Origin: Caldifarciminota bacterium
Lineage (GTDB): Bacteria > Hydrothermota > Hydrothermia > UBA1063 > CAJXJZ01
DNA: 63,200 nt
Assembly (NCBI GenBank): GCA_026986775.1
Contig: JALSNX010000002.1
Location: 1-63,200 of the forward strand
Direction of reading: 5' to 3'
A program made the translations under genes and the position numbers. This document shows, piece by piece, positions 41,227 to 57,811 of this stretch (the stretch's first letter is position 1; every line of letters begins with the position of its first letter). Below the pieces are notes generated by a model, which was not told where the DNA came from, ran no database searches, and worked only from the letters and a program-made list of their open reading frames with translations.

Positions 41227-42950
41227 ATAAAACTGGCAGGTTTTCCAATCAGATATCACTGGTTTTTTCTCTCTTAATAGCTTTTGTCACATTGGCCATT
41301 GGAATTATTATATCGTATCTTTACAGAAGAAGCCTTGTTGAATTTGCTGAGAATTATGCTATAGCCATTGCCGGGAATGTATCATCTGAAATAGCTGAAA
41401 AGCAGAATCAGGCGTTTTTGGACCTTTCTGAAATAAAATATATCTTTTCATCCACCCGTCTTTTGCCTGACAGCAAGCTGGATCTTGTAAAGAATAAACT
41501 CAGAAAAACACCGTATATGCTGTTTGTAGGAATATATGATACACTTGGTATGCCTATTGATTTCATTACAAAAACAAAATTTAAGCCTCCTCCACTTAAT
41601 ATAAAGTCAATGAAAAATAAACAGAACCGTTATGTAAGAGTGGTAAGAACGACAGATTCAATTCACTCCCCTGTAATGGAAATTATAACCCCGTGGAAAG
41701 AATTTTCGCATAATATGGGTTTCATATCCATGGGTTTTTCTATGGACTGGTTAAAAGAACTTCTTGAACGTCTTTCTTTACAATATACAGGTAAAAAATA
41801 TCACGTGTTTGTGGTGGATTCAGAAGGTGGGGTAATTATTCCGCAGGATACATTTCTCACAACAGGTGCCTATTCCGAATTATCCGATGCTTTTGGCAAA
41901 AATCTCGTTTCCATGATACATCATCGTTTAAGTGTGTCTTCAATCTATACAAATTTTCTGGGTGAAAAAGTCTTTTCCACACTTATTACCCTTCCTTCAA
42001 CTGGTATGGGAGTGATAATAGAGCAGCCTTTAGCTGTTTTATACACCCCTTTGAAAAAAATTCAGATAATCTCACTTGTTATAGCACTTATTGCAATTTT
42101 GATTGCATTGGGAGTGGCGCGATTTATTTCCATAAGGATTACTCTCCCGTTAAAGCAACTGGAGAAAGGTATAGAAGAGGTAGCAAAAGCCAATTTTGAT
42201 TATACTATCAAGATTGAAGGCAATAATGAAATAGCAAGGGTGGCTCATGAATTTAATGAAATGGCCAGAAGACTTTTACACTATAAAAACCGTCTTATTC
42301 AGGAGACGAAAACTCGAGCCTATCTTCAACGTTATCTATCACTCCCTTTCCTTGCAAAACTCATGTCAGATGGTAAAAATTTCCTTGAAGAAAAACCAGC
42401 AAAACACTATGTGACAGTGATGTTCGTGGATGTTGCTGATTTTACCTCCATAACCTTTGAACTTGGCCCTCAAGAAGTTGCTGAATATCTGAATGAATTT
42501 TTTAAACTGAGTACAGAGGTCATTTTTAAATACGATGGTGTTGTGGATAAGTTTATAGGTGACTGCGTGCTTGCCTTATTTGGTGTTCCAATAAACTGGC
42601 AGGGTATGGAAAAAAGTGCAGTAGTTGCAGCAAGAGAAATTATAAAGAGATTTCAATCCATGGAGGATGCATTTGAAAGGAGATTTGGATTTCCCATCAG
42701 AGTGAAGGCTGGCATATCAACAGGGGAGGTTATTGTAGGAAATATAGGTGCTCCAAATAGAATGGACTATACTGCAATAGGTCCAACAGTCAATCTGGCA
42801 TCCCGCCTGGAAGCCATTGCCAGTGAGGGAGAAATAATAATAGATGAGGCAACAAAAAGGGCTCTTCCAGATGACATAAAAACAGTTTTTATGGGGGAGC
42901 ACGAAATAAAAGGAATTAAGAACAGAGTTCGGCTGTACAGGGTGGTATAA
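41223..42950 (+). CDS. Membrane-bound Cache-HAMP class III adenylate/guanylate cyclase
   Basis: The 575-residue protein has a membrane helix (about 8-30), a periplasmic Cache-like sensor (35-270), a second helix (about 275-298), HAMP (300-352) and a catalytic domain (390-575). Metal-binding aspartates are visible in VMFVDVADFTSITF and KFIGDCVLALFG. The transition-state Asn/Arg region is TAIGPTVNLASRLEA. It should make cAMP or cGMP in response to a periplasmic signal. Its start overlaps the OmpA-FecR gene, so the two may form one signalling unit. No cyclic-nucleotide receptor is recognised in the window. Confidence 0.9.
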   Translation: MNKTGRFSNQISLVFSLLIAFVTLAIGIIISYLYRRSLVEFAENYAIAIAGNVSSEIAEKQNQAFLDLSEIKYIFSSTRLLPDSKLDLVKNKLRKTPYMLFVGIYDTLGMPIDFITKTKFKPPPLNIKSMKNKQNRYVRVVRTTDSIHSPVMEIITPWKEFSHNMGFISMGFSMDWLKELLERLSLQYTGKKYHVFVVDSEGGVIIPQDTFLTTGAYSELSDAFGKNLVSMIHHRLSVSSIYTNFLGEKVFSTLITLPSTGMGVIIEQPLAVLYTPLKKIQIISLVIALIAILIALGVARFISIRITLPLKQLEKGIEEVAKANFDYTIKIEGNNEIARVAHEFNEMARRLLHYKNRLIQETKTRAYLQRYLSLPFLAKLMSDGKNFLEEKPAKHYVTVMFVDVADFTSITFELGPQEVAEYLNEFFKLSTEVIFKYDGVVDKFIGDCVLALFGVPINWQGMEKSAVVAAREIIKRFQSMEDAFERRFGFPIRVKAGISTGEVIVGNIGAPNRMDYTAIGPTVNLASRLEAIASEGEIIIDEATKRALPDDIKTVFMGEHEIKGIKNRVRLYRVV

Positions 42951-43012
42951 TATACCTTGTTCATATTTTCACTTTCTTGATTATACGCTGAAATTCCTTC
43001 ATCATTTTACAT

Positions 43013-43026
43013 GTGAAATTTATCAC
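43013..43026 (+). promoter_or_regulatory. Candidate Rex operator upstream of rex
   Basis: GTGA-AATTTA-TCAC is an inverted repeat 20 bp before the rex ATG. It resembles the Rex site (TTGTGAA-n-TTCACAA), though the outer bases are imperfect. A possible promoter lies just upstream: TTGATT 42977-42982, 17 bp, CATCAT 43000-43005. That layout would give autoregulation and redox control of the whole downstream operon. Confidence 0.45.
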
Positions 43027-43045
43027 TTACAAGAAGGGGTGATGT

Positions 43046-43669
43046 ATGCGAAAAAGAATACCTGAGGCCACAATAAGAAGGCTCACGCATTATTTGAGGT
43101 GTATAGAGTTTATCAAGGAGACAGGGGCAGAAATACTCCAATCCCGGGACCTTGCTACATTTTGCAGTATAAGCGATTCTCTTGTGAGACGTGACCTTTC
43201 CTATTTCGGAGAGTTTGGCACAAAGGGTGTGGGATATTCCATCAGTGAGCTTGAGAAACACATTAAAAAAATATTGGGGATTGATAGAACCAAGAAGGTA
43301 GGGCTTGCTGGTGTGGGAAACATCGGAAGGGCTCTTTTGAATTTTCCGCTCCTGAAAAACGGGTTTAGCATTGAGGCTGCTTTTGATATAAGAGACGAAC
43401 TTATTGGAAAAAAGATAAATGGAGTGATGGTGTATCATGAAAATGATATGATAAAGGTCTTTAAGGAAAAGCAGCTTGAGATGGGGATTATAGCTGTTCC
43501 CCAGCAGGCAGCTTTGGATGTGGCAAATAAGATGATAGAAGGTGGTGCAAAGGGTCTTTTGAGCTTTGCTTTGATTCAGTGTCCTTTGAAAAAGAAAGTG
43601 CCATTAAGATACATAGAGATAGCTGCTGAACTTGAAATTTTGAGTTATGAGATAGAAAAGGAGGAGTAA
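43046..43669 (+). CDS. rex: Redox-sensing transcriptional repressor Rex
   Basis: The 207-residue protein has a winged-helix domain (EILQSRDLATFCSISDSLVRRDLSYFGEFGTKGVGY) and a Rossmann domain with GVGNIGRALL that senses the NADH/NAD ratio. Rex represses anaerobic and respiratory genes until NADH rises. It heads the Mrp-Mbx operon with a 1-bp gap to mrpE. This placement points to NADH-responsive control of the respiratory complex. Confidence 0.95.
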   Translation: MRKRIPEATIRRLTHYLRCIEFIKETGAEILQSRDLATFCSISDSLVRRDLSYFGEFGTKGVGYSISELEKHIKKILGIDRTKKVGLAGVGNIGRALLNFPLLKNGFSIEAAFDIRDELIGKKINGVMVYHENDMIKVFKEKQLEMGIIAVPQQAALDVANKMIEGGAKGLLSFALIQCPLKKKVPLRYIEIAAELEILSYEIEKEE

Positions 43670-43670
43670 T

Positions 43671-44171
43671 GTGAAGAGCCTGTCCAGATGGCTGTATACT
43701 GCCATTATATTTTTTATAATCTGGATTGCCCTTGTGGGCACAATAAGGTGGGATGAACTTGTCACCGGTGCCGCTGTGTCCATTATTCTTGCGATATTTA
43801 CAGCCCATATCTTTACAACAGAGGGATTATCAAATCTCTCCCCGAAGAAGGTGATATGCGGTATCATTTATTTCTTCCCTTACCTTATCTGGCAGATGAT
43901 AAAGGCAAACCTTGACGTTGCATACAGGGTTATACACCCTAAAAGGCCAATAAACCCAGGGATTGTAAAGGTCAAAACAAAAATGCATAGTGACCTTGCA
44001 AAGACCATTGTTGCCAATTCTATTACTCTTACACCGGGTACTTTTACTCTGGATGTAAGGGGTGATGAGATGTATATTCACTGGATTGATGTGAAATCTC
44101 AGGATGTTGAAGAGGCAAGTGAAATGATACCAGGAGTGTTTGAAAAATGCCTTATGAAATTTATGGATTAA
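43671..44171 (+). CDS. mrpE: Mrp-type cation/proton antiporter subunit E (MbxA-like)
   Basis: The 166-residue membrane protein starts at GTG. It has two to three membrane helices followed by the MnhE signature ANSITLTPGTFTLDV. It is part of the membrane arm that translocates Na+ or H+. It overlaps the F subunit by 25 bp. It is the first of 13 genes in the order of archaeal mbx operons. Confidence 0.92.
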   Translation: MKSLSRWLYTAIIFFIIWIALVGTIRWDELVTGAAVSIILAIFTAHIFTTEGLSNLSPKKVICGIIYFFPYLIWQMIKANLDVAYRVIHPKRPINPGIVKVKTKMHSDLAKTIVANSITLTPGTFTLDVRGDEMYIHWIDVKSQDVEEASEMIPGVFEKCLMKFMD

Positions 44172-44419
44172 CTGTGTATGTGTATGTGGGGCTAATTATG
44201 TTGGGGGTTTTGTTCAGTCTGGTGCGTTTCGTGGCCGGACCATCGGCCCCTGACAGAGTCGTGGCAACGGATATTCTAACCACAATAACCACGGTTGTTC
44301 TTGTTGTTCTTGCTCTGTTTTTCAAGAGGCAAATTTACCTTGATGTGGCTCTTGTATATGCGGTTTTAGCATTTACAGCAGTTGTGGCAATAGCACGGTT
44401 CCTTGAGGGAGGGCTCTAA
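44147..44419 (+). CDS. mrpF: Mrp-type antiporter subunit F (MbxB-like)
   Basis: The 90-residue protein has three membrane helices with the family motif VAGPSAPDRVVATDIL and the conserved aspartate in YLDVALVYAVLAFTAVVAIARFLE. It overlaps mrpE and lies 1 bp before mrpG. Confidence 0.93.
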   Translation: MPYEIYGLTVYVYVGLIMLGVLFSLVRFVAGPSAPDRVVATDILTTITTVVLVVLALFFKRQIYLDVALVYAVLAFTAVVAIARFLEGGL

Positions 44420-44420
44420 A

Positions 44421-44756
44421 ATGATACAAAAAACAATAGGTGAGGTTTTTCTCATTATAGGTGGAATCTTTATGTTTCTTGCGTCACTGGGTCTTTTGAG
44501 AATGCCGGATGTTTATAACAGAATGCAGACATCTACAAAAGCTGTTACTCTTGGTGCAATGTCCAGTATACTTGGAGTTGGTATAATTCACCCTGCATGG
44601 CTTCCAAAATGTATCCTTATTATGCTTTTTATTCTTTTTACAAACCCTGTCTCAGCACACGCAATTGGAAGGGCAGCTTACAGAACCGGAGTTAAACTGT
44701 GGAAAGGTTCTGTGTGTGATAAGTATGGTTCATGCATGGAGGATGAGGATGAATAA
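44421..44756 (+). CDS. mrpG: Mrp-type antiporter subunit G (MbxC-like)
   Basis: The 111-residue protein has three helices with LGLLRMPDVYNRMQTSTKAVTLG and NPVSAHAIGRAAY, typical of MnhG. ATG 44421 follows GAGGGAGGG; an in-frame TTG at 44403 is rejected because it lies before the ribosome site. It overlaps the next gene by 8 bp. Confidence 0.93.
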   Translation: MIQKTIGEVFLIIGGIFMFLASLGLLRMPDVYNRMQTSTKAVTLGAMSSILGVGIIHPAWLPKCILIMLFILFTNPVSAHAIGRAAYRTGVKLWKGSVCDKYGSCMEDEDE

Positions 44757-45003
44757 TCTGATTTTGTTTATGGGTTTTGGTCTGTCGCTGGTCCTTGTGG
44801 TTGCCACATTCGTTGTGTGGCTATCAAAGGACCTACTTGTGGCTATTTTAGGTTCAGCTGTGGTGAGTCTTGTGGCGTCAATCTTCTTTCTCATATTACA
44901 GGCACCTGACGTAGCAATTACAGAGGCCGCAATAGGAGCAGGGCTTACAACAGGTATTCTCCTTTATGCCATGAAAAAAGCCGGGAGGTATGAGGATGAT
45001 TAG
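44749..45003 (+). CDS. MbxD-like subunit (DUF4040, MrpA C-terminal-like)
   Basis: The 84-residue membrane protein contains LQAPDVAITEAAIGAGLTTG, the mark of the MbhD/DUF4040 part of MrpA. In Mbh and Mbx complexes this piece is a separate subunit of the ion-translocating arm. ATG 44749 is used, with GGAGG 6 bp upstream; the frame is open further back inside mrpG but without a ribosome site. Confidence 0.88.
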   Translation: MNNLILFMGFGLSLVLVVATFVVWLSKDLLVAILGSAVVSLVASIFFLILQAPDVAITEAAIGAGLTTGILLYAMKKAGRYEDD

Positions 45004-45679
45004 GAAAATTATTGCATTCTTAGTTGTATTTTACTTTGGCTATATCCTTTATTCATTTATCGCTGTTAACTTTCCCTTTGGAGAAAGACCACTTAAGGGA
45101 GTTGCTGCCCATTATGTGGACAAAGGTATAGAAGAAGAGGGAGCTACGAACATTGTAACTTCAATTGTTACTCTTTACAGAGGTTTTGATACGCTGGGAG
45201 AGGTAACGGTCCTGTTCCTTGCTGCCACAGGGCTTGGCCTCTTATTGGCAGGAATGAAAGAGGAGGAGAAGGAAAAACCTGAGCCAACTCTGATAATGGA
45301 GACCACAACCAGATACCTTTTTCCACTTGTACTTTTATTCGGTACTTACATATTCATACACGGGCATCTCACACCCGGTGGAGGATTTCCTGCCGGTGTT
45401 GTCATAGCCACAGGATACTTCATGATGTTTATAGCACAGAAACAGTTTAAGCCATCTGAATATCTTCTGTCTGCCACAGAGAGTTTCGCCGGAACGCTTT
45501 ATGTCATAATGGGACTTCTGGGACTTGCACTTGCCTTTTCTTTTCTTGCAAACGTTATGCCTCTTGGCGTTCCCAATACAGTATTCAGTGCGGGAATAAT
45601 ACCTGTAATTTACATAATAATAGGCTTCAAGGTTGGCAGTGAAATGACTGGAATCCTTGCTCATCTTAAGGAGGCGTAA
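44996..45679 (+). CDS. mrpB: Fused MbxE/MrpB-type antiporter subunit (MbxF-like)
   Basis: The 227-residue protein joins an MbhE-like N-terminus (NIVTSIVTLYRGFDTLGEVTVLF, about 1-90) to an MnhB domain (about 100-227, LFGTYIFIHGHLTPGGGFPAGV). In Thermococcales Mbh these are two proteins; in Mbx they are fused, which supports the Mbx assignment. ATG 44996 is preferred with GGGAGG 7 bp upstream; ATG 44990 is too close to it. Confidence 0.88.
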   Translation: MIRKIIAFLVVFYFGYILYSFIAVNFPFGERPLKGVAAHYVDKGIEEEGATNIVTSIVTLYRGFDTLGEVTVLFLAATGLGLLLAGMKEEEKEKPEPTLIMETTTRYLFPLVLLFGTYIFIHGHLTPGGGFPAGVVIATGYFMMFIAQKQFKPSEYLLSATESFAGTLYVIMGLLGLALAFSFLANVMPLGVPNTVFSAGIIPVIYIIIGFKVGSEMTGILAHLKEA

Positions 45680-45680
45680 T

Positions 45681-46034
45681 ATGAATGGAGGACTTTTATT
45701 TTACGGTAGCTCTGTGTTTTTAATGGTAATGGGGATTTTTATTGCCATAACTGGCAAACACCTTATAAAGATACTGCTTGGTATTGACCTTTTTGATGTT
45801 GGTCTCAATCTGCTCATTATTTCCTTTGGATATGTAAATGGCGGTACAGCACCTATTTTCTCAAAGTATCCTCACATATTTAAAAACGTGGTTGACCCTG
45901 TTCCTCAGGCTCTTGTTCTTACTGCCATAGTAATTGGGGTTGCTGAAATGGCCATGGGACTTGCAATAGTCATGAAGATAAAAGAAAAATTTGGAACATG
46001 TAATATTGCCAAACTAAAGGAGTTAAAATGGTAA
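45681..46034 (+). CDS. mrpC: Mrp-type antiporter subunit C, NuoK-like (MbxG-like)
   Basis: The 117-residue protein has three helices and the NuoK/MnhC pattern with conserved glutamate in VLTAIVIGVAEMAMGLAIV, plus DPVPQALVLTA. ATG 45681 follows AAGGAGG by 6 bp. It overlaps the next gene by 7 bp. Confidence 0.93.
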   Translation: MNGGLLFYGSSVFLMVMGIFIAITGKHLIKILLGIDLFDVGLNLLIISFGYVNGGTAPIFSKYPHIFKNVVDPVPQALVLTAIVIGVAEMAMGLAIVMKIKEKFGTCNIAKLKELKW

Positions 46035-47488
46035 GCCCGATTCTTGTAATTGCACTTTCTCTGTTTTTTGCTTTTGTTATTCCTTTGCTGGGAATGGTTT
46101 CTAAAAAGCTTCCCCGCCTTGTTCCTCCACTGGCTATGCTTGTGAATCTGTGGATTTTGATTACAAATATAAAGTTTGTGTCGCGGGGGGCTATGCTTGT
46201 TACAACAGCAGGACTTAAACCTCCTATAGCCATTAACCTTGCTATAGACCGGTTCAGTCTGCTTTTTGTTATCCTCATACAGTTAATTGGGCTTTTACTT
46301 TCGGTTTACTATCTCTCTCAGGATAACAGGGACCAGCGGTTCTACATGTTGTTTTTACTCAATATCCTTGGTGCATCTGGTATTGTAATGACGGGCGATA
46401 TTTTCAATTCCTTTGTATTTCTTGAAATACTTGAGATTTCTTCCTTTGGTCTTGTGGCTTCTAAAAAGGATAGGAAGGCTCTTGAGGGTGGATTCAAATA
46501 CATGGTGATAGGTGCTATAGGTTCTTCACTGTATCTTCTGGGCATTATAGTTCTCTATCTTACAACCGGGTCTTTGAACATGGCTGAAATAGCAAAACTC
46601 ATGCCCCATATACCCGAGAGTATAAAACTCTTTGCTGCCTTGCTTCTTCTTGCTGGAATTGGTGTGGAGGTAGAACTCTTTCCTCTCAATGCATGGGCAC
46701 CGGATGCATACCATGGTGCAAAAGATGAGATAAGCACGCAGCTTTCCTCAATCATATCAAAGGCAGGTATATATCTTGCTGCGAGAATATTCTTTACAAT
46801 ATTCAATGGATTTTATGCTCTCAAGATAATTTTCTACCTTGGTGTAATCACCTTTGTGATAGCTGAGCTTGCAGCCCTGATGCAAAAGAACGTAAAAAGA
46901 ATGCTTGCTTACTCCTCCATTGGACAGATGGGCCTTTTAATGCTCATTTTATCTTTAGTGGCAAAAAGAGGTGATGTGTTTGTCATAACAACAGTTATTC
47001 TCCTTGCACTCAATCACGCCTTTGGAAAAGGACTTTTATTCCTTTCTCTCGGAGCTTTGAGTGGTGGGAACGGTGAATACGAGATTGAAAATCTTGGTGG
47101 AAACGGCAGAGCAAATCCCCTTGCGGGATTTCTCTTTACTGTGGGTGCGCTGTCAATTGTCGGTATGCCCTTTTTCTTCGGTTTCTGGTCCAAAATTTCA
47201 GCCCTTATATCTCTTATGAAAACAAACGTAATATACCTTATTGCACTTGTTCTTGTAATTTCTCTTGTTGAGATCTATTACTACGGCAATGTGATTGTTA
47301 ATCTTTTTAGAGGGGAAGGTAAAAAGTATGGTATCAGCATTGTCCCGGCCGCTGTTATGATTTTATTCGCTCTTTTCGTGATAGTTTTTGGTATATGGCC
47401 ACATCCCGTATTCCAGATTGCGCAGAGTGCTGCTGTGTCATTGATTGAGAGAACAACCTATATTTCTTCAATTATAGGAGGTATGTGA
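46028..47488 (+). CDS. mrpD: Proton-translocating antiporter-like subunit (MrpD/MbxH, NuoN/M family)
   Basis: The 486-residue protein has about 14 helices. Conserved channel residues are seen in FVFLEILEISSFGLVASKK (Glu of TM5), ELFPLNAWAPDAYHGA and the lysine/histidine motifs KRMLAYSSIGQMG and NHAFGKGLLF. It is one of two large antiporter-like subunits in this operon. AAAGGAG precedes the ATG. Confidence 0.93.
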   Translation: MVSPILVIALSLFFAFVIPLLGMVSKKLPRLVPPLAMLVNLWILITNIKFVSRGAMLVTTAGLKPPIAINLAIDRFSLLFVILIQLIGLLLSVYYLSQDNRDQRFYMLFLLNILGASGIVMTGDIFNSFVFLEILEISSFGLVASKKDRKALEGGFKYMVIGAIGSSLYLLGIIVLYLTTGSLNMAEIAKLMPHIPESIKLFAALLLLAGIGVEVELFPLNAWAPDAYHGAKDEISTQLSSIISKAGIYLAARIFFTIFNGFYALKIIFYLGVITFVIAELAALMQKNVKRMLAYSSIGQMGLLMLILSLVAKRGDVFVITTVILLALNHAFGKGLLFLSLGALSGGNGEYEIENLGGNGRANPLAGFLFTVGALSIVGMPFFFGFWSKISALISLMKTNVIYLIALVLVISLVEIYYYGNVIVNLFRGEGKKYGISIVPAAVMILFALFVIVFGIWPHPVFQIAQSAAVSLIERTTYISSIIGGM

Positions 47489-49293
47489 TGGCAATGTTTT
47501 ACCTTCTTCTTTTGCTTGTTTTGGTGGGTATTGTTTCATTTGTTCTGGGCCCGATTAAAGTTCTCAGAAACATCATAGCCTTTTTAGGTGCAGTGACAGC
47601 ATTTTTCTATTTTCTTACGAATATAAAACCCGGGCTCATATACTCCCTCAATATACGTGTCTATAACGTCCATTTTGAGGCTGGATTTTCAAGTATGTTT
47701 TTCGGTGTTATCATCACTGCTCTTTTCATTATCTTTCTCATTGCATCCTTTCATGAGGAAAATGATGGAGCGTATTACCTGTTTGCATACCTTACACTCA
47801 CAGGGGCACTGGCTGTTCTTTTTGCAAAGGACCTTATTTCATTCTTCTTCTTCTTTGAAACTATGAGTCTCTTCTCATTCCTCATGGTTCTTAAGGGTAA
47901 AAGTGATACCTCTTTTCGCTCTGCATTCAAATACCTTGTGTGGTCGGTTTTTGGAGGGTATGCCTTCCTGATGGGAACGTTTTTGAAGGTATATTACACT
48001 CACTCAGTTATGATTGGGGACATTTCATACCTTGCAGGTGGAGTGAAACTTCTTATTCTCATACTTCTTCTTGCGCCATTTGCAGTTAAGGCGGCGCTTA
48101 TGCCGTTTCATCTGTGGGCACCGGATGCGTATAAGGATTCTAAGGATACATTCACAGTCTTTTTCTCTGGAGGATTATCCAAGATAGGTGTCTTTGGATA
48201 TTTCCTTGTTCTCTTTAAAGTTTTTACTGAAATTGCAGTTAAATATCCGTATTTTCTGAAAGCCTTTGCGTGGCTTGGTGCAATAACAGCCGCACTTTCG
48301 GGCATATACGCATTTATGCAGGATGATGCGAAAAAGTTACTGGCATACTCCAGTATAAGCCAGCTGGGGTATGTGGCGGTTGGTTTTGGTATTTATACCC
48401 ATTTTAGTGTGGTTGCTGCACTTTTCCATGCTCTCGGTCATGCTGTATTTGAATCCCTCCTTTTCCTTGTGGTTGCAGGTGTTTACTACAGAACAAAGAC
48501 TACAGACTTAAGGAAAATGGGGGGACTCATAAAGAGAATGCCACTTTCGTTTATTGGCCTTCTCTTTGGAATTATAGCCACCTCAGGAATACCTCCAACA
48601 ATAGGATTTCCCTCAAAATGGTTACTCTATGAAGCCCTCATTTTAAAGGGTGATTTATTGCTTACGAGTCTGGTTTTCTTTGCCTCAATTACTGCCTTTC
48701 TCTACTCATACAAACTTGTTCATGGAATATTCCTTGGAAAACTCCACGAGGAACACAAAAACGTAAAGGAAGCACCTCTCGGTTATGCTTTTGGAACCGT
48801 TGTTCTTCTTGTGCCTTTACTTGTTCTTGGAATTATACCGGGCCTTGTGATAAAGCCCATTGATTATATTGTAAGGTTCTATCTCAAGCCCGAACTGGGC
48901 TACAATCTTGCCAATATGAATACCCCTCTTGGACATGTGAACTTTCCTGTAGTTGGACTTGTTATGGGGCTTACATTTGCCCTTTCTCTCTTCATATACT
49001 TAATAGCTGGAAAATCTTACAGAGCGGAACAGACAGATAACTACACGGCAACAGAAGCAATAGATGAAGATTTTGAGCTTCATTATGCAGGTGAGTTCTA
49101 TGGATTTATGAAAAAGGCCTTTGGCAGGCCACTTACGTGGAGTTTTGAAAAGATACTGAATGCATTTTTGAAACTGTTCTCTTTCCTTGGTGAAGTTGCA
49201 AGAGGATTCTATATGGGAGATGCAAGGGTCTATCTATTCTATGTTATAGCGTTCTTTGCTCTTTTAGCATATCTTATGGGAGGTAAATTATGA
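47488..49293 (+). CDS. Second antiporter-like subunit (MbxH'-like, NuoL/MrpD family)
   Basis: The 601-residue protein has about 14-16 helices and the channel motifs DLISFFFFFETMSLFSFLMVLK, AALMPFHLWAPDAYKDSKD, KKLLAYSSISQLGYV and FHALGHAVFESLLFLV. The long C-terminus resembles the lateral-helix region of NuoL. The presence of two such subunits (H and H') is a feature of Mbx/Mbs, whereas Mbh has one. ATG 47488 follows AGGAGG by 5 bp; a GTG at 47485 is an alternative. Confidence 0.9.
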   Translation: MAMFYLLLLLVLVGIVSFVLGPIKVLRNIIAFLGAVTAFFYFLTNIKPGLIYSLNIRVYNVHFEAGFSSMFFGVIITALFIIFLIASFHEENDGAYYLFAYLTLTGALAVLFAKDLISFFFFFETMSLFSFLMVLKGKSDTSFRSAFKYLVWSVFGGYAFLMGTFLKVYYTHSVMIGDISYLAGGVKLLILILLLAPFAVKAALMPFHLWAPDAYKDSKDTFTVFFSGGLSKIGVFGYFLVLFKVFTEIAVKYPYFLKAFAWLGAITAALSGIYAFMQDDAKKLLAYSSISQLGYVAVGFGIYTHFSVVAALFHALGHAVFESLLFLVVAGVYYRTKTTDLRKMGGLIKRMPLSFIGLLFGIIATSGIPPTIGFPSKWLLYEALILKGDLLLTSLVFFASITAFLYSYKLVHGIFLGKLHEEHKNVKEAPLGYAFGTVVLLVPLLVLGIIPGLVIKPIDYIVRFYLKPELGYNLANMNTPLGHVNFPVVGLVMGLTFALSLFIYLIAGKSYRAEQTDNYTATEAIDEDFELHYAGEFYGFMKKAFGRPLTWSFEKILNAFLKLFSFLGEVARGFYMGDARVYLFYVIAFFALLAYLMGGKL

Positions 49294-50177
49294 GTATTCT
49301 CTACTTTTTTCTGTACCTTCTCCTTGTTACAATAATCGGGCTTTTGTACATGGGGGCTGCAAGGAAAATAACAGCCCATATACAGAATAGATATGGGCCT
49401 CCGGTTTATCAGCCTATACTGGATGTTTTAAAACTTTTTGCTAAAAAGGATACTGCTTCTCACGGAATTATGCACTCTCTTGGTCCGGTTATTGCATATA
49501 CAGGAATTGCCGCCACATTGCTATTTCTACCACTTGGAAATCATACTCCACTACTCCACTTCAACGGTGATCTGTTTGTTGTGCTCTATCTTCTTGTTGT
49601 GGGACCTCTGGGAATGGCTCTTGGTGCAGGGGAATCTGCAAATTCCAATGCCACAATCGGAATAGCGAGGGCCCTTTCAATGATGCTGGGCTACGAAATA
49701 ATCTTCTTCATGGCCACCCTTCCTGTATTTTACCACTATGGTACTGCCTCAATCTACAGGGTTATACAGGCTCAGGGCGCTTTTCCAGACTGGGCGGCCA
49801 TTCTATTTCCCATATCATTTATTGCAGGACTCTTTGCTCTGCAGGGTCTTATGGGAGAAAAACCATTTGAACTTGTAGTTGCCCCTCATGAGATTGCATC
49901 AGGTCCCATGGTGGAATACGGTGGAAAATACCTTGGACTTCTTCAGATATGGCACGCTGTGGGAATAATTGTTGAAACAGGTCTCTTCGTTGATATATTC
50001 TTCGGCCCTCAGAGTATTCTGTGGTTTTTTGCAGGAACTTTTATTGTATTCTTTGCCACTGTGATTGTTAATGCAGTTATGCCCAGATTTAGAATAGAGC
50101 AGGCTGTAAGATTCTACTGGGGGCTACCCCTTTTGCTTTCAATCTTAGGAATATTGCAGGTTTATATCTGGAGGTAG
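49290..50177 (+). CDS. mbxM: NuoH/HycD-like membrane anchor subunit (MbxM-like)
   Basis: The 295-residue membrane protein has about eight helices and family motifs RKITAHIQNRYGPPVYQPILDVLKL and EKPFELVVAPHEIASGPMVEYGGKY (quinone-chamber-like loop). It links the ion-pumping arm to the iron-sulfur peripheral arm. The ATG overlaps the previous stop by 4 bp. Confidence 0.92.
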   Translation: MSILYFFLYLLLVTIIGLLYMGAARKITAHIQNRYGPPVYQPILDVLKLFAKKDTASHGIMHSLGPVIAYTGIAATLLFLPLGNHTPLLHFNGDLFVVLYLLVVGPLGMALGAGESANSNATIGIARALSMMLGYEIIFFMATLPVFYHYGTASIYRVIQAQGAFPDWAAILFPISFIAGLFALQGLMGEKPFELVVAPHEIASGPMVEYGGKYLGLLQIWHAVGIIVETGLFVDIFFGPQSILWFFAGTFIVFFATVIVNAVMPRFRIEQAVRFYWGLPLLLSILGILQVYIWR

Positions 50178-50180
50178 AAG

Positions 50181-50690
50181 ATGAAACTGTTTAAATTTGC
50201 ACAATCCCGGTCTTTGTGGATGATGCACTTCTGTACGGGGTGTGGGGCTGTTGAACTCCCCCCAACCATGACCTCCCGTTTTGATATGGAGAGATTTGGA
50301 ATAATACCTATGGCAACACCGAGACAATCCGATTTATTGCTTATAACTGGATATCTCACAGTTAAGACCCTGAAGAGGGTTGTGAGGGCTTATGAGCAGA
50401 TGCCCACGCCCAGATACGTAATAGGCTTTGGCTCATGCACCATAAACGGAGGGATGTATTGGGACTCTTACAATGTGATAAAGAAACTTGAACTTTACAT
50501 ACCAGTTGACCTTTACATAAACGGTTGCATGCCAAGACCAGAGGCCATTATTGATGCTTTCTTGAAGTTAAGAGAGATGATAGATAAAGGCGAGGCCAAC
50601 GCATGGAAAAAGTATATAGAAAACTACGAGTGGTATAAAAAGAACCAGGCAGAAGTATTTGATGTAGAAAAATGGAGTTTAAAGAAATGA
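50181..50690 (+). CDS. mbxJ: NuoB/MbxJ-like small subunit carrying the proximal [4Fe-4S] cluster
   Basis: The 169-residue protein has the cluster ligands Cys18 and Cys21 (FCTGCGAVE), Cys86 (GSCTINGG) and Cys116 (NGCMPRPEA). It passes electrons from the N-subunit clusters to the active site in the L subunit. The L/J pairing is shared by complex I, group 4 hydrogenases and Mbx. Confidence 0.94.
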   Translation: MKLFKFAQSRSLWMMHFCTGCGAVELPPTMTSRFDMERFGIIPMATPRQSDLLLITGYLTVKTLKRVVRAYEQMPTPRYVIGFGSCTINGGMYWDSYNVIKKLELYIPVDLYINGCMPRPEAIIDAFLKLREMIDKGEANAWKKYIENYEWYKKNQAEVFDVEKWSLKK

Positions 50691-51223
50691 CAGTTGAAGA
50701 GACCATTAAAAAAGACATTGAAACAACTTTTGGGGAGCTTGTGAGGGTGGAAATAGAGCGGAAGCACAGAGTGAGGGCATATACACCCAGAAACATGGTC
50801 CTTCCCATGCTTGCCTATCTTAAACAGCGCGGATTTCACCAGTTTACACTTCTTACCTGCGTTGACTGGATAAAAGATGGGAAATTTGAACTCGTGTACA
50901 ACCTTTACTCCCTGAATTACAATGTGCATGTGTTGATAAGTACAAAGATAAATCGGGATAAAGCGACAATGCCGACTGCTATAAATGTTTATGAAATGGC
51001 TTTTGATTATGAGAGAGAGATTCATGAGATGTTTGGTGTGGAGTTTGAAGGACATCCAAGACTTGATGAGTTTCTTCTTGAAGACTGGAAAGGGATACCT
51101 CCCATGAGAAAGGACTTTGATACAAGAAAATACGTGGAGGAGAAATACGGAATGAAAGACCTAACAAAGGAACTTTTCACAAGAAAAGAACAACCATACA
51201 GGGGGCCAGGTTCAAATGGGTAA
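50687..51223 (+). CDS. mbxK: NuoC/MbxK-like subunit
   Basis: The 178-residue protein has the NuoC 30-kDa motif YEREIHEMFGVEFEGHPRLDEFLLEDW and the PPMRKDF segment. It packs against the L subunit. ATG 50687 overlaps the mbxJ stop as ATGA and has GGAG 9 bp upstream; ATG 50672 is a possible alternative. It overlaps mbxL by 8 bp. Confidence 0.92.
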   Translation: MTVEETIKKDIETTFGELVRVEIERKHRVRAYTPRNMVLPMLAYLKQRGFHQFTLLTCVDWIKDGKFELVYNLYSLNYNVHVLISTKINRDKATMPTAINVYEMAFDYEREIHEMFGVEFEGHPRLDEFLLEDWKGIPPMRKDFDTRKYVEEKYGMKDLTKELFTRKEQPYRGPGSNG

Positions 51224-52331
51224 AATAAGAGAGTTTGACTTTGAATACTTTATAGGACCTGCACATCCCGGTGTTACCGGGAACATGTCATACCACATAT
51301 GGGCAGAGGGTGATACAATACTGAAGATTGAACCCAATTTAGGATACCTTCACAGAGGCTTTGAAAAATTAGTTGAGCAAAGACACTGGATAAAAAACTT
51401 TCCACTTATTTTGAGAATATGTGTGCCAGAGCCAGATGTAAATGAAGTCCTTCTCGCAATGGCTGTGGAGGAATTAAACGAGATTGATGTGCCAGAAAGA
51501 GCCCAGTATATAAGAATAATAGTCCTGGAACTTGCAAGGCTTGCTGCGTACCTCTTTTACTTTGGTGGAGTGGCTGGTGCAATTGGACTTTATACCATTC
51601 CGCAGTGGACAATAGGGGACAGAGACTATATCCTTGACCTCTTTGAGGAACTCACGGGAGGAAGGGTTTATCACATATACCAGACCATAGGTGGAGTGAG
51701 AAGGGATACGCCAGAAGGGTTTGAGGAGAGGGTTTTAAAGGTCTTAGATTATCTTGAGGAACGTCTTAAAGACTACGATAAACTGTTCTTTGAGCACCCT
51801 CTTTTCTTAAAGAGAACAAAGGGTATTGGCATTGTTGATAAGGATACGGCCCTCAGATTCAGCGTTACAGGTCCGAATCTCAGGGCAGCAGGTGTAAATT
51901 ATGACGTAAGAAAACAGGAGCCCTATCTCATCTATGATAGATTTGACTTTGATGTGCCGGATATTTACAGAGATGGTGATGTATATTCAAGGGCAATGCA
52001 GAGAAGACTTGAATTCGCAGAATCCATAAGGATTATAAGACAGGCAATAGATAAGATGCCGGGGGGGGCTGTGAACATAAAAATCCGCAATCCATTTGAG
52101 TACAGGGTCAGGGCAGGTTCAACATATGTTAAACTTGAATCTTCCAAAGGCGAATACGGGTTTTATGTGGTCTCTGATGGTGGGGTCCTTCCTTACAGGC
52201 TCCATGTGAGGGGACCGAGCTTTTCTCACGGACTCCAGCTCGTAAGACACATTGCAGAAGGCACAAACATAGCTGACATATCAATGATTTTATTCAGTCT
52301 GGACGTATGTCCACCTGATGCAGAAAGGTAG
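51216..52331 (+). CDS. mbxL: NuoD/MbxL-like large subunit with only two of four NiFe-type cysteines
   Basis: The 371-residue protein is related to NiFe hydrogenase large subunits and NuoD (GPAHPGVTGNMSYHIWAEGD at the start). The N-terminal CxxC appears as RICVPEP (Cys69 kept, Glu72 at the second position) and the C-terminal CxxC as DVCPPDAER (Cys365 kept, Asp368). A normal NiFe site needs four cysteines, so hydrogenase activity is unlikely. Loss of two cysteines is what I recall for archaeal MBX/MBS, the sulfane reductase. A G8 run at 52061-52068 lies in the coding region. No hydrogenase maturation genes are present. Confidence 0.92.
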   Translation: MGKIREFDFEYFIGPAHPGVTGNMSYHIWAEGDTILKIEPNLGYLHRGFEKLVEQRHWIKNFPLILRICVPEPDVNEVLLAMAVEELNEIDVPERAQYIRIIVLELARLAAYLFYFGGVAGAIGLYTIPQWTIGDRDYILDLFEELTGGRVYHIYQTIGGVRRDTPEGFEERVLKVLDYLEERLKDYDKLFFEHPLFLKRTKGIGIVDKDTALRFSVTGPNLRAAGVNYDVRKQEPYLIYDRFDFDVPDIYRDGDVYSRAMQRRLEFAESIRIIRQAIDKMPGGAVNIKIRNPFEYRVRAGSTYVKLESSKGEYGFYVVSDGGVLPYRLHVRGPSFSHGLQLVRHIAEGTNIADISMILFSLDVCPPDAER

Positions 52332-52338
52332 GTGTGTT

Positions 52339-54111
52339 ATGGGAATGAATCTTAAGTTTTTTGACGCTCTAAAGTTTCTTGTAAGAAAACCTCATACAGT
52401 GCGGGTTCCATATGAAAAGAAGGAACCTGCAAAAAGGTACAGGGGGATTCATGTAAACGACTGGGAAAAGTGTATAGGATGTGGAAACTGCGCAAAAATA
52501 TGTACCTGCCAGGCCATTGAGATGGTAGAGATACCAACACTCACTCCTAAAATGGGAGCCACAAACTTAAGGCCACAGGTTGACTATGGACGCTGTTCAT
52601 TCTGCGGGCAGTGTGTTGATGTATGTCCAACAGGTTCTTTGAAACTTTCAACAGAATATGAGATTATATCTTCGGACATAAATGATTTTAAGTTCATTCC
52701 GAACCTCAATCGTGATTCAGGTCCAGGAACCGGCTGGGAGTCTGATATAGAAAGTTCCCTTCTTGACTTTAAGCGGGTTGAAATGCCAGAGAGGGACCCA
52801 AAAGAGAGGAAGAAGGACTTTGACTGGGTTCTTAAAGGTTTCTCTGAGGAAGAGGCTGTATTTGAGGCTGTAAGATGTCTTGGATGTGCACTCTGTGTGC
52901 AGGGCTGTCCAACTGGCATGTACATCCCTGAGTACATTAATGCCATATTCAATAAGGACTATGAAAAATCTGTTGAGTGGATGTTCATAAACAATCCTTT
53001 ACCAGAGGTGTGTGGAACCATCTGTACTCACAGGTGTGAGGATGCATGTGTATATCACAACAGAGGCCAGGCAGTGCAGATAAGATACTTAAAGGGATTT
53101 GCAGCAGGTAAGGTTGATGATTACGAAAAAGTTGTTGGTATATCAAAGAAGAAAGCAGATAAGAAGGTTGCACTCATTGGTGCAGGTCCCGCGAGTTTAT
53201 CATGTGCATTTTATCTCAGGAGAGAAGGGGTTGATGCAGTCATATATGAGGCGCAGAAGGTTGCAGGTGGAATGCTTAAACTGGGTATTCCGAGGTACAG
53301 ATTGCCTGATTCAATTCTGAGTAAAGAAATTGACTTTATAAAGAAACAGGGCGTGGAGATTAAATTTGGTATAAGAGTTGGTGTGGATGTTACTTTTGAG
53401 CAGTTGCTCAAAATGTATGATGCAGTATTTATTGGCACAGGTTACCATGTGGGAAGCAGAATGGGTATTCCCGGAGATGAAGGGGAAGGTGTATTTGATG
53501 CCGCGACGCTCTTAAGAGACGTCAATTTAGGCAAAGAGGTAAAAATAGGAAAGAAAGTTCTGGTTATTGGTGGTGGAGATGTGGCAATGGATGCAACAAG
53601 GACAGCGCTCAGGCTCGGTGCAGAAGAGGTTATTCTCTCTTACAGAAGAAGATACGTTGACATGCCTGCATCAGACGAGGAAAAACACGAGGCAGAGGCA
53701 GAGGGTGTTAAGTTTATGACGCAGACCCTACCTGTGGAGATTGTGAGAGACAAAAACGGTAGGATTACAAAGGTGAAGTATGTGGAAACGGAGATGGTGC
53801 ATGAAGAGGGAGCAAGAAGGCCGAAACCCGTGCCCAAAATGGACAATGTGATGGAATGGGAGATTGATACAGTTATCATGGCCATTGGACAGAAGCCAGA
53901 CTGGAGTTTCCTGCCCGATGAGTGGAAGAATAAAATAAAATTTGACAGGAGAATGAATCACATAATAGTGAACGATGATATGATGACAGATGTAGAGGGA
54001 GTATTCGCTGGCGGTGACATTGTAAATCCACGTGCTGATGCCATAAGTGCAATAGCAGATGGCAGAAAAGCAGCACTTGGAATTATCAAGTACTTAGAAA
54101 TCAGAAAGTAA
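52339..54111 (+). CDS. MbxN (NuoI-like ferredoxin) fused to a GltD/NfnB-type NAD(P)H flavoprotein
   Basis: The 590-residue protein has two parts. Residues 1-110 are the NuoI/MbxN-like subunit with two [4Fe-4S] motifs (Cys45, 48, 51, 55 and Cys86, 89, 92, 96). From about 165 it is a complete GltD/NfnB-like module: cysteine-rich domain (Cys180-190 and Cys225-237), FAD site LIGAGPASLS and NAD(P)H site VIGGGDVAMD. In known Mbx operons N is a small separate protein. The fusion suggests that NAD(P)H or NAD(P)+ exchanges electrons directly with the complex. ATG 52339 lies 8 bp after mbxL. Confidence 0.9.
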   Translation: MGMNLKFFDALKFLVRKPHTVRVPYEKKEPAKRYRGIHVNDWEKCIGCGNCAKICTCQAIEMVEIPTLTPKMGATNLRPQVDYGRCSFCGQCVDVCPTGSLKLSTEYEIISSDINDFKFIPNLNRDSGPGTGWESDIESSLLDFKRVEMPERDPKERKKDFDWVLKGFSEEEAVFEAVRCLGCALCVQGCPTGMYIPEYINAIFNKDYEKSVEWMFINNPLPEVCGTICTHRCEDACVYHNRGQAVQIRYLKGFAAGKVDDYEKVVGISKKKADKKVALIGAGPASLSCAFYLRREGVDAVIYEAQKVAGGMLKLGIPRYRLPDSILSKEIDFIKKQGVEIKFGIRVGVDVTFEQLLKMYDAVFIGTGYHVGSRMGIPGDEGEGVFDAATLLRDVNLGKEVKIGKKVLVIGGGDVAMDATRTALRLGAEEVILSYRRRYVDMPASDEEKHEAEAEGVKFMTQTLPVEIVRDKNGRITKVKYVETEMVHEEGARRPKPVPKMDNVMEWEIDTVIMAIGQKPDWSFLPDEWKNKIKFDRRMNHIIVNDDMMTDVEGVFAGGDIVNPRADAISAIADGRKAALGIIKYLEIRK

Positions 54112-54115
54112 AGGG

Positions 54116-54155
54116 TTATGCAAAACTTGACATTTACTCCATTATGCATTAAATT
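54116..54155 (+). promoter_or_regulatory. Promoter and possible operator before the arsR-type gene
   Basis: TTGACA (54127-54132), 17 bp, TAAATT (54150-54155). TTATGCA occurs twice, at 54116-54122 and 54142-54148, bracketing the -35 box. This may give arsR and nfnAB their own transcript within the operon. Confidence 0.5.
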
Positions 54156-54187
54156 ATTAACCCGACAGAGACAAACGGGAGGAGAAC

Positions 54188-54511
54188 ATGAAAAAGTACG
54201 TAAAAGACCTGGAGGACCCAAGGAAGTACATATTCTCAGCACTTTCATGTGGAAGGAGAATAAGGATAATAGAAATCCTGAAGGAGGGCGAGAAAAAGGC
54301 ATCGGATATTATTCCAGAACTGGGTATAGACCAGTCGGCAGTTTCCAGACATCTCTCCATACTCAAAGGTGCCGGTATTATAGCATCAAGAAAAGAAGGA
54401 GTAAATGTCATTTACAGAATAGCGGACCCGGATATTTTCAAATTACTGGAAATAGCCACAGAAATTGTGAGGAGAAAGGAAAAACAGGTTCTGAGAAAGC
54501 TGGGCAAATAA
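54188..54511 (+). CDS. ArsR-family transcriptional regulator
   Basis: The 107-residue winged-helix protein has RRIRIIEILKEGEKKASDIIPELGIDQSAVSRHLSILKGAGIIASRKEGVNVIYRI, typical of ArsR. It has one cysteine (SALSCGRR) and no CxxC pair, so metal or thiol sensing is uncertain. In Thermococcales a distant ArsR-type protein, SurR, switches between Mbh and Mbx in response to sulfur; the position here invites comparison but orthology is not shown. AGGAG precedes the ATG. Confidence 0.88.
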   Translation: MKKYVKDLEDPRKYIFSALSCGRRIRIIEILKEGEKKASDIIPELGIDQSAVSRHLSILKGAGIIASRKEGVNVIYRIADPDIFKLLEIATEIVRRKEKQVLRKLGK

Positions 54512-54571
54512 TCCTCACATATTACAGCTTTGGAATAACTCCTTTATTTAAAACCAACGGGAGCGTGTTTA

Positions 54572-56846
<2,275 letters not shown>

Positions 56847-56850
56847 TTTT

Positions 56851-56875
56851 GAGGGGGCAGAGTCCCCCTCTTTTT
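56851..56875 (+). terminator. Terminator after nfnB, touching the start of the next gene
   Basis: GAGGGGG (56851-56857), loop CAGAGT, CCCCCTC (56864-56870), then T5. It lies 4 bp after the nfnB stop and ends 3 bp before the ATG of the permease gene. Confidence 0.85.
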
Positions 56876-56878
56876 ACC

Positions 56879-57811
56879 ATGCGTTTATTCAAAATACTTC
56901 TTGTTTTTATTTTTTTTCTCCTATTTTCGTACTTTTACCTGTTCAATGGTGCACCTTCTGCTGATGTTATCCAGCTCAGGTTCGTAAGGTTTCTTCTTGC
57001 TCTCTTTGCTGGTTTCAGTCTCTCAATTAATGGTGCAGTTTTACAGACCATAACGCAGAACCCCCTTGCCGAACCCTATCTTGTTGGGATATCAGGTGGG
57101 GCGCTCATTGGATACCTTATAGGCCTTGGAGTATCGCTTCAATCTCCTTTTTCTCTCTCCCTGCCCGCTTTTCTTTTCTCTCTTGTGGGAGTATTCATAA
57201 CCTATAAAGTTGCATCAGTGAAAGGCAGTACCAGAACAGAGCTTCTTGTTCTTACAGGTGTGTTTATAAATATATTCGCCTCAAGTATAGTCTTTCTTGT
57301 TGCTTACTTTCTAAATCTATCTCTTGATAGAATAATTTATCTTTTATTTGGCAGTCTTAACATCGTTATAGGCGATAAGGAACTTCTTTTCTTTTATATA
57401 TCCATTGGGTTGGGATTTATTCTTGAGGCTTCTTTAATACTGTTATCACGTGAACTGGACCTTATTGCTCTGGGTGATGAGGAGGCCCATTCAACTGGTG
57501 TTAATCCAGAGATGGTGAAAAAAACTGTATTTATTATCTCTTCTATCACCACAGCATTTTTAGTATCTTTTACGGGCATCATAGGTTTCGTGGGTCTTAT
57601 AATACCACATATCACACGCTCCATTTTTGGTAAAAAACATCTTACTTATCTTCCATCACTTCTTCTAACCGGTGGGCTTTTTCTTCTTGCCTCAGATTTT
57701 GTTGCCAAATCCCTGTTTTCCTTTGAACTTCCGCTTGGAAGCATTACATCTCTTTTCGGAATACCGTTTTTCTTTTACATGATAATGAAGAGACGCCATG
57801 AAAGTATTTGA
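56879..57811 (+). CDS. FecCD/BtuC-type ABC importer permease
   Basis: The 310-residue membrane protein has about eight to ten helices and the family motifs NGAVLQTITQNPLAEPYLVGISGGA and GFVGLIIPHITRSIFG. Such permeases import iron-siderophores, haem or cobalamin. ATG 56879 has no ribosome site; the hairpin of the nfnB terminator ends just before it. A GTG at 56843 overlapping the nfnB stop is an in-frame alternative that would include the hairpin in the coding region. No substrate-binding protein is adjacent, so the substrate is open. Confidence 0.88.
   Translation: MRLFKILLVFIFFLLFSYFYLFNGAPSADVIQLRFVRFLLALFAGFSLSINGAVLQTITQNPLAEPYLVGISGGALIGYLIGLGVSLQSPFSLSLPAFLFSLVGVFITYKVASVKGSTRTELLVLTGVFINIFASSIVFLVAYFLNLSLDRIIYLLFGSLNIVIGDKELLFFYISIGLGFILEASLILLSRELDLIALGDEEAHSTGVNPEMVKKTVFIISSITTAFLVSFTGIIGFVGLIIPHITRSIFGKKHLTYLPSLLLTGGLFLLASDFVAKSLFSFELPLGSITSLFGIPFFFYMIMKRRHESI

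What the first reader, a model, noticed from the sequence alone, without database searches (positions are those of the whole stretch)
43671..54111. Bacterial MBX/MBS-like operon in the archaeal gene order
Gene order E, F, G, D, fused E/F, C, H, H', M, J, K, L, N matches the Thermococcales mbx operon as I remember it. It has two antiporter subunits and the E/F fusion, and the L subunit keeps only Cys69 and Cys365 of the four NiFe ligands. Hydrogenase maturation genes are not seen. The complex is therefore probably a sulfane or other non-H2 reductase that pumps Na+ or H+.
Basis: partly seen in the sequence, partly recalled or inferred. Interest (0 to 1): 0.75.

Follow-up and report, generated by a model that had tools for sequence, protein, structure and literature searches.

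The report
NADPH-wired bacterial sulfur-respiration pump operon
The stretch encodes a 13-subunit ion pump related to the sulfur-reducing MBX/MBS complex of heat-loving archaea, here in an uncultured bacterium of phylum WOR-3 and with a built-in domain for taking electrons from NADPH, so it probably lets the cell gain energy from sulfur without oxygen, quinones or hydrogenase metals.

Summary
In detail: 13 tightly packed genes at 43671-54111, in Thermococcales mbx order. L has exactly two cysteines, C69 and C365. L, J, H, H' and M all match Pyrococcus furiosus MBS (6u8y) best in the PDB. L groups with Pf MBS (26-row clade, support 100/99), apart from group 4 NiFe hydrogenases and complex I. It is an MBX/MBS, not a hydrogenase or a quinone enzyme.

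Two corrections. First, the genome does carry hydrogenase maturation genes, beside a separate NiFe hydrogenase; 10 of 28 WOR-3 genomes with this complex lack HypD. The fused frame is seen in 26 of 28 MBX-bearing WOR-3 genomes; in the other two, L lies at a contig end.

The operon sits 1 base behind a rex gene with a Rex-like palindrome before it, and is followed by NfnAB.

Best reading: an NAD(P)H-linked, ion-pumping sulfane reductase. The old Fd:NADP+ pump model is not excluded. NCBIfam already models the fused protein (PRK13984), probably also present in Thermotoga. Substrate and donor are inferred.

The parts
43011..43028 (+). Rex-box-like palindrome ATGTGAAATTTATCACTT, 35 to 18 bases before rex
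   Evidence: By eye: 4 mismatches to the recalled Rex consensus; a like palindrome at -24 to -35 in 7 of 7 loci with rex upstream. Not significant in the window alone (a -89 site scores better)
43046..43669 (+). rex, redox-sensing (NADH/NAD+) repressor; ends 1 base before the operon
   Evidence: NCBIfam Rex 1.8e-63; spacing
43671..44171 (+). MbxA / MrpE-like (E)
   Evidence: TIGR00942 1.1e-37
44147..44419 (+). MbxB / MrpF-like (F)
44403..44756 (+). MbxC / MrpG-like (G)
   Evidence: relatives align from residue 7, so the true start may be 44421
44749..45003 (+). MbxD / DUF4040, MrpA C-terminal-like (D)
   Evidence: listed ORF begins 44665, relatives align from residue 29
44990..45679 (+). fused MbxE/F, MrpB-like
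45657..46034 (+). MbxG / MrpC-like (C)
46028..47488 (+). MbxH antiporter-like pump subunit
   Evidence: Best PDB 6u8y_H 2.2e-90; 4 of 5 named Pf key residues kept
47485..49293 (+). MbxH' second antiporter-like pump subunit
   Evidence: Best PDB 6u8y_X 1.8e-81; 5 of 5 named Pf residues kept
49290..50177 (+). MbxM membrane anchor (NuoH-like)
   Evidence: Best PDB 6u8y_M 2.9e-54; of 5 named acidic residues 2 kept, 1 D to E, E193 to K, E104 to V
50181..50690 (+). MbxJ (NuoB-like), proximal [4Fe-4S] cluster; Cys 18, 21, 86, 116
   Evidence: Best PDB 6u8y_J 8.6e-74, ungapped across the cluster motif
50672..51223 (+). MbxK (NuoC-like)
51216..52331 (+). MbxL (NuoD-like), Cys 69 and 365 only
   Evidence: Best PDB 6u8y_L 3.3e-110; tree
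52318..54111 (+). MbxN fused to a SudA/NfnL/GltD-type FAD-NAD(P)H domain (N domain about 1-150, flavin domain about 160-597)
   Evidence: PRK13984 2e-185 over 15-594; Fer4 + Fer4_20 + Pyr_redox_2; 6u8y_N on residues 12-115 and NfnL/Xfn on 152-594
54188..54511 (+). ArsR/SmtB-family regulator
54572..55414 (+). NfnA/SudB-like FAD subunit
   Evidence: PRK06222 3.1e-125
55386..56846 (+). NfnB/SudA-like subunit (free-standing paralogue of the fused domain)
   Evidence: TIGR01316 6.2e-185
56851..56870 (+). terminator-like hairpin with T run, likely end of the transcription unit
   Evidence: strongest G+C stem in the scan

Best explanation
The operon encodes a bacterial MBX of the MBS type whose input module has been rebuilt for NAD(P)H. 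Electrons from NADPH (in this clade) enter the FAD of the domain fused to N, run through its two predicted [4Fe-4S] clusters and the two of the N domain to the proximal [4Fe-4S] cluster of J, which is held by three cysteines. There, in the J/L/M cavity, that cluster reduces polysulfide or another disulfide. The reaction is coupled through M to proton pumping by H and H' and to the Mrp-like Na+ module (E, F, G, D, EF, C). Rex makes the operon answer to NADH/NAD+, and the neighbouring NfnAB makes NADPH from NADH and ferredoxin. Shown: gene content and order, motifs, kinship, conservation of the fusion. Inferred: cofactors, donor, acceptor, direction, coupled ion, regulation.
For: Kinship: L groups with Pf MBS in a 26-row clade (100/99) apart from 10 NiFe rows (100/99) and 17 complex-I-like rows (100/95); best PDB hit of J, L, H, H' and M is 6u8y. 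Site: the J motif aligns ungapped with MbsJ, whose C28/C93/C123 hold the catalytic cluster and whose C25 does not (PMC7684303, section 10); in relatives the three ligand cysteines are kept in 23 of 23, 23 of 23 and 24 of 24 rows with the residue, while the C25 equivalent is lost in one (G130). Quinone-site His38 and Tyr87 of Nqo4 are not both present in any of the 28 MBX rows: Tyr87 is Val in 28 of 28, His38 is kept only in G005 and G001. Donor: fused flavin domain in 26 of 28 MBX genomes, against stand-alone frames of mostly 150-230 aa for the next NuoI-like hits; all 16 cluster cysteines kept in 23 of 23 rows and YRRR after the nucleotide fold in 15 of 23. Rex and NfnAB in the same string. 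Analogy: T. maritima mbxA rises 4.36-fold on S0 (PMC9431562 passages).
Against: No biochemistry. Ferredoxin, the donor of Pf MBS, could still dock on the N domain. Some charged residues of Pf MBS are not kept (MbsH H330, MbsM E104 and E193). In 8 of 23 fused domains the RR motif is replaced by CLET/CLES-like sequence, so NADPH is unlikely to be the donor throughout; perhaps NADH there. NfnAB next door is seen only in the window's genus, rex upstream in only 7 of 16 loci where E is seen. No sulfur-growth data exist for these lineages that I know of; the S0-using isolate sy37 lacks rnf (PMC12542636 passages) and I could not tell whether it has MBX. The N model was too weak to place the two halves (mean pLDDT 60, residues 1-174 under 50).
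Confidence: 0.5

Rival explanations
1. Ion-pumping ferredoxin:NADP+ oxidoreductase, the original MBX model: reduced ferredoxin gives electrons to the Fe-S chain and NADP+ is reduced at the fused flavin domain, feeding a sulfur reductase, the NiFe hydrogenase or biosynthesis.
For: A NAD(P)-binding domain is covalently part of the complex. Fd:NADPH was the older proposal for archaeal MBX (PMC2678158 and PMC3035292 passages). The genome has a hydrogenase with a gene resembling a NAD(P)H-linked gamma subunit (by eye).
Against: The flavin domain hangs on N, so ferredoxin to NADP+ transfer would bypass the J/L/M cavity to which pumping is tied in MBH, MBS and complex I (my inference). The MBS-type cluster site in J is strictly kept. 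Rnf, another Fd-linked pump, occurs in 24 of 28 MBX genomes, and Nfn is next door here.
Confidence: 0.25
2. Plain ferredoxin-dependent MBS as in P. furiosus; the fused domain is a side branch, for example a ferredoxin dock or a safety valve, and does not feed the pump.
For: All core features are those of Pf MBS. T. maritima MBX has been predicted to use ferredoxin (PMC9431562 passages).
Against: FAD, nucleotide and cluster motifs of the fused domain are conserved across deep WOR-3 lineages (23 rows), which is not expected of an idle part.
Confidence: 0.17
3. Quinone-reducing complex I-like enzyme, as automatic names (NuoB/C/D/H/I) and the 2025 WOR-3 survey's 'nuo genes' would suggest.
For: NCBIfam names the subunits NuoB, NuoC, NuoD and NuoH.
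Against: Tyr87 of Nqo4 is Val in 28 of 28 MBX rows, while 15 of 15 complex-I-like rows of other loci keep both His38 and Tyr87; separate clade.
Confidence: 0.02
4. Active group 4 NiFe hydrogenase.
For: The genome makes NiFe maturation proteins.
Against: The second Cys of the N-terminal pair is absent in 28 of 28 MBX rows; HypD is absent from 10 of 28 genomes, 8 of them at least 90% complete and at most 5% contaminated; tree.
Confidence: 0.01

Closest known systems
Pyrococcus furiosus MBS/MBX (PDB 6u8y)
   Same: 13 subunits in the same order, single E/F subunit, two antiporter-like subunits, J cluster motif, L with two of four NiFe cysteines; best PDB hit of J, L, H, H' and M
   Different: MbsN is a separate 208-residue chain without flavin domain; ferredoxin is the donor. 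Here N is 597 aa and fused to an NfnL/SudA-type domain, and the host is a bacterium
Thermotoga maritima MBX (13-subunit unit, mbxA THEMA_RS08165; PMC9431562)
   Same: Bacterial MBX with 13 subunits; Rnf in the same genome
   Different: I could not read its N gene. In the PRK13984 search one of 14 control genomes passed the model's cut-off, unnamed; I infer T. maritima, so the fusion is probably shared
Dehydrogenase-linked MBX of Desulfurococcaceae (Thermosphaera, Desulfurococcus, Staphylothermus; PMC3035292, PMC2678158)
   Same: An MBX-type gene string with a sudA homologue proposed to link it to NADPH
   Different: There sudA is a separate gene near the operon, in archaea, in an operon type compared with formate hydrogenlyase
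NfnSL / sulfide dehydrogenase (5jca, 5vj7, 4ylf)
   Same: The fused domain has the NfnL/SudA fold, best Foldseek hit 5jca_L
   Different: No NfnS partner in the fusion; joined instead to the pump's two-cluster N domain
NCBIfam PRK13984 (NF010590) 'putative oxidoreductase'
   Same: Same two-domain architecture, matched over 15-594
   Different: No function given; the window protein scores 617 bits, below the model's cut-off of 946

Membership tests
MBS/MBX (membrane-bound sulfane reductase) | 13-gene order with single E/F subunit and two antiporter-like subunits | tested here: met
   contiguous E to N in the window and 13 of 27 relatives' loci, the other 14 cut by contig or stretch ends
MBS/MBX (membrane-bound sulfane reductase) | L retains two of four NiFe cysteines (Pf C85, C385) | tested here: met
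   C69, C365; but lost in G128, G135, G077, G124
MBS/MBX (membrane-bound sulfane reductase) | Proximal cluster in J ligated by three cysteines, short motif | tested here: met
   ungapped alignment with 6u8y_J; ligand positions by sequence only
MBS/MBX (membrane-bound sulfane reductase) | L groups with MbsL | tested here: met
   100/99 clade; one archaeal MBS only in the tree
MBS/MBX (membrane-bound sulfane reductase) | Ferredoxin-driven reduction of polysulfide, coupled to ion pumping | not testable with these tools
   needs protein
Group 4 NiFe hydrogenase (MBH) | Four Cys ligands in L | tested here: not met
   2 of 4 in the window; 0 of 28 MBX rows have four (3 rows lack the C-terminal end)
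Group 4 NiFe hydrogenase (MBH) | Maturation genes in the genome | tested here: inconclusive
   HypD present here but with another hydrogenase; absent in 10 of 28 MBX genomes
Complex I / Nuo | Quinone-site His38 and Tyr87 (Nqo4 numbers, roles recalled) | tested here: not met
   T and V in the window
Complex I / Nuo | NuoEFG input module | not tested
   no such genes among ORFs 39436-58559 (names); genome not searched for them
Nfn (electron-bifurcating) | NfnL fold with FAD, NADPH site and two cluster motifs | tested here: met
   for the fused domain
Nfn (electron-bifurcating) | NfnS partner with second FAD in the same enzyme | tested here: not met
   no NfnS domain in the fusion; nfnA is a separate gene paired with nfnB

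The most novel reading that the evidence does not exclude
The fused NfnL-like flavin bifurcates: one electron of NADPH goes to polysulfide through N and J and drives the pump, the other goes to ferredoxin (or the reverse), so that electron bifurcation and ion pumping take place in one enzyme.
Probability: 0.08. Interest if true: 0.9.

Novelty: new variant of a known kind. Interest (0 to 1): 0.5.

Why it matters
If the donor is NAD(P)H, this is a quinone-free counterpart of complex I: a flavin/NAD(P)H module wired to an ion pump whose terminal reaction is at an iron-sulfur cluster. It would give WOR-3 a route for sulfur respiration; the 2025 survey of the phylum notes S0 use by isolate sy37 without psr or dsr genes (PMC12542636 passages) and a library search for WOR-3 with Mbx gave no paper. 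It would also change the ferredoxin-only scheme drawn for bacterial MBX. The WOR-3 subclade whose L has lost all four ligand cysteines is a natural counterpart of the Pf C85A/C385A mutants, which kept activity.

Tried and rejected
NiFe hydrogenase and quinone enzyme: rejected by ligand and quinone-site residues and by the tree. 'No maturation genes' as an argument: dropped, since the genome has them. Rex sites by plain consensus scan of the window: at chance level; the palindrome upstream of rex was then seen by eye and compared over 7 loci. Against simple mononucleotide shuffles the best site within 150 bases is rare in four (G053, G052, G122 and G022, 1-12 of 500) and not in G048 or G047; in the window the best-scoring site (29 of 500) is another one at -89. 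Viral contigs held no relative of the fused N. Paper searches for WOR-3 with Mbx (0 papers), for 'membrane-bound sulfane reductase' with NADPH and fused, for TM1217 (one passage, uninformative), and the listings gave no description of the N fusion; I read only passages of the papers named, so absence from print is not shown. Subunits E, F, G, D, EF, C and K were not compared with the PDB.

Rows dropped: from the tree I left out four of the 58 rows (three fragments L072, L084, L088, and L007). In one search I used 27 loci, one per MBX genome other than the window's. For the lower-scoring L hits I took only 20 stretches plus L057, L058 and L006-L008, not all.
Full report
WHAT IS THERE. The window carries 13 tightly packed ORFs from 43671 to 54111 on the + strand. 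Family scans name them MrpE-, F-, G-, DUF4040-, B- and C-like, two antiporter-like subunits, NuoH-, NuoB-, NuoC- and NuoD-like subunits, and a 597-aa protein with a NuoI-like start. Junctions overlap by 4-25 bases or are 3 bases apart. A rex gene ends 1 base before the first of them, and ArsR, NfnA-like and NfnB-like genes follow on the same strand; a G+C-rich terminator-like hairpin lies at 56851-56870. The genome is 2.18 Mb in 30 contigs; the closest named records are candidate division WOR-3 bacteria with L 94% identical.

IS IT MBX? Against the PDB, J, L, H, H' and M all have their best match in 6u8y, the P. furiosus MBS (E 8.6e-74, 3.3e-110, 2.2e-90, 1.8e-81, 2.9e-54); MBH (6cfw) scores far lower (L 1.5e-41). 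L contains two cysteines, 69 and 365, in RICVPEP and LDVCPPD, close to MbsL (RICVPEP, LDNCPPD). In a 54-row tree of L (LG+C20+F+G4), 21 two-cysteine MBX rows, four zero-cysteine rows and Pf MBS form a group of 26 with support 100/99; ten four-cysteine hydrogenase rows form another (100/99), and 17 complex-I-like rows a third (100/95). Order inside the MBX group is mostly open, and Pf MBS lies among the bacterial rows, so the direction of transfer is not resolved. A weak model of L also matches 6u8y_L best.

ACTIVE SITE. The MBS paper (PMC7684303; outline, section 5 part 1, sections 10 and 11 read) puts catalysis on the proximal cluster held by MbsJ C28, C93 and C123; C25 of J and C85/C385 of L are dispensable. 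The window's J aligns without gaps through this motif. Over relatives the three ligand positions are Cys in 23 of 23, 23 of 23 and 24 of 24 rows that hold them, and the C25 equivalent is Val in G130. In L the first of the two cysteines is kept in 24 of 28 rows and the second in 21 of 25 (three rows end early); the four rows without either are G128, G135, G077 and G124, one clade (100/100). The natural losses agree with the published mutants. Tyr87 of the quinone site is Val in 28 of 28 MBX rows; all 15 complex-I-like rows from other loci keep His38 and Tyr87. L101 (G039), outside the MBX group, has neither pattern in full.

THE FUSION. The last gene is not a plain N subunit. Residues 12-115 match the separate 208-residue 6u8y_N, and 152-594 match NfnL, Xfn and, more weakly, glutamate synthase small chain; Pfam finds Fer4, Fer4_20 and Pyr_redox_2, and the model's best fold match is NfnL 5jca_L. 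Searching 147 WOR-3 genomes with the N domain alone, the 26 best genomes (E 1.2e-28 or better) have it in open frames of 450-630 aa, the 450 one being cut by a contig end; the next hits (E 5e-19 and worse) lie mostly in frames of 150-230 aa. MBX-type L occurs in 28 of the 147; the two without a fused N, G017 and G122, have L at a contig end. In 23 aligned fused proteins all 16 cluster cysteines are kept; the nucleotide site reads YRRR in 15, the window's clade included, and CLET/CLES/SLET in 8. I read YRRR as favouring NADPH (recalled from GltD/NfnL; not tested). NCBIfam already has a model for the architecture, PRK13984; one of 14 control genomes passes its cut-off, which I infer, but cannot show, to be T. 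maritima.

GENOME CONTEXT. HypD is present in the window's genome on contig C27, in a cluster that I read by eye as HypA, a NiFe hydrogenase with RICAIC/DPCISC, a protease, HypF, HypD and HypE. Among the 28 MBX genomes HypD is found in 18 and not in 10; of the 17 that are at least 90% complete and at most 5% contaminated, 8 lack it. G052 and G053, with L 76% identical, have no HypD but an [FeFe] hydrogenase. Rnf (PF03116) is found in 24 of 28. Rex stands upstream in 7 of the 16 loci in which E can be seen (and the window), and a palindrome resembling a Rex box lies 24-35 bases before it in all 7. NfnAB follows only in the window's genus (window, G048, G046).

HOW IT PROBABLY WORKS. Core subunits fix the pump type (MBS) and the terminal site; the fused domain adds an entry for NAD(P)H. 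[quoted passage not shown] Hence NAD(P)H to polysulfide with H+/Na+ pumping is my first choice (0.5), ferredoxin to NADP+ the main rival (0.25). The rex and nfnAB genes fit a NAD(P)H-linked role. Key residues of the pump are kept in H' (5 of 5) and mostly in H (4 of 5), less so in M.

KNOWN AND NEW. Bacterial MBX is known in T. maritima, where mbxA rises with S0 and ferredoxin is the presumed donor (PMC9431562 passages). A sudA-linked archaeal MBX with NADPH was suggested in 2010 (PMC3035292 passages). The 2025 WOR-3 survey (PMC12542636 passages) speaks of nuo genes, Rnf and sulfhydrogenase; a library search for WOR-3 with Mbx and hydrogenase gave 0 papers. New here, as far as I searched: MBX in 28 of 147 WOR-3 genomes, the near-universal N fusion, the zero-cysteine L clade, and the Rex linkage.

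Noticed in passing
L055, L085, L086, L087 (G128, G135, G077, G124): MBX-type L that has lost all four NiFe ligand cysteines (RINV.EP or RLNV.EP / SLY..APEIDR), one clade, with the N fusion kept and a changed nucleotide motif
   Followed up: partly
L101:968-2137 (G039): NuoD-like L with RACFID and SLYMCHGD, one cysteine at each site, long branch beside the MBX group
   Followed up: no
window 27935-32105: RamC_N + kinase + LANC_like protein, a class III/IV-type lanthionine synthetase, followed by an ABC transporter
   Followed up: partly
window 6637-8310: Another SudA/GltD-type NAD(P) oxidoreductase with a hydrophobic, perhaps membrane-anchoring N-terminus
   Followed up: partly
L049 326-13757 (G000 C27): NiFe hydrogenase of apparently group 3b type with maturation genes; likely the H2 enzyme of this genome (names by eye)
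   Followed up: partly
G000 C11:39025-40212 and C30:152606-153823: GltD-type domains inside very long open frames (1486 and 1125 aa), the latter some 12 kb from rnf
   Followed up: no
window 41223-42950: HAMP + guanylate/adenylate cyclase just upstream of rex
   Followed up: no
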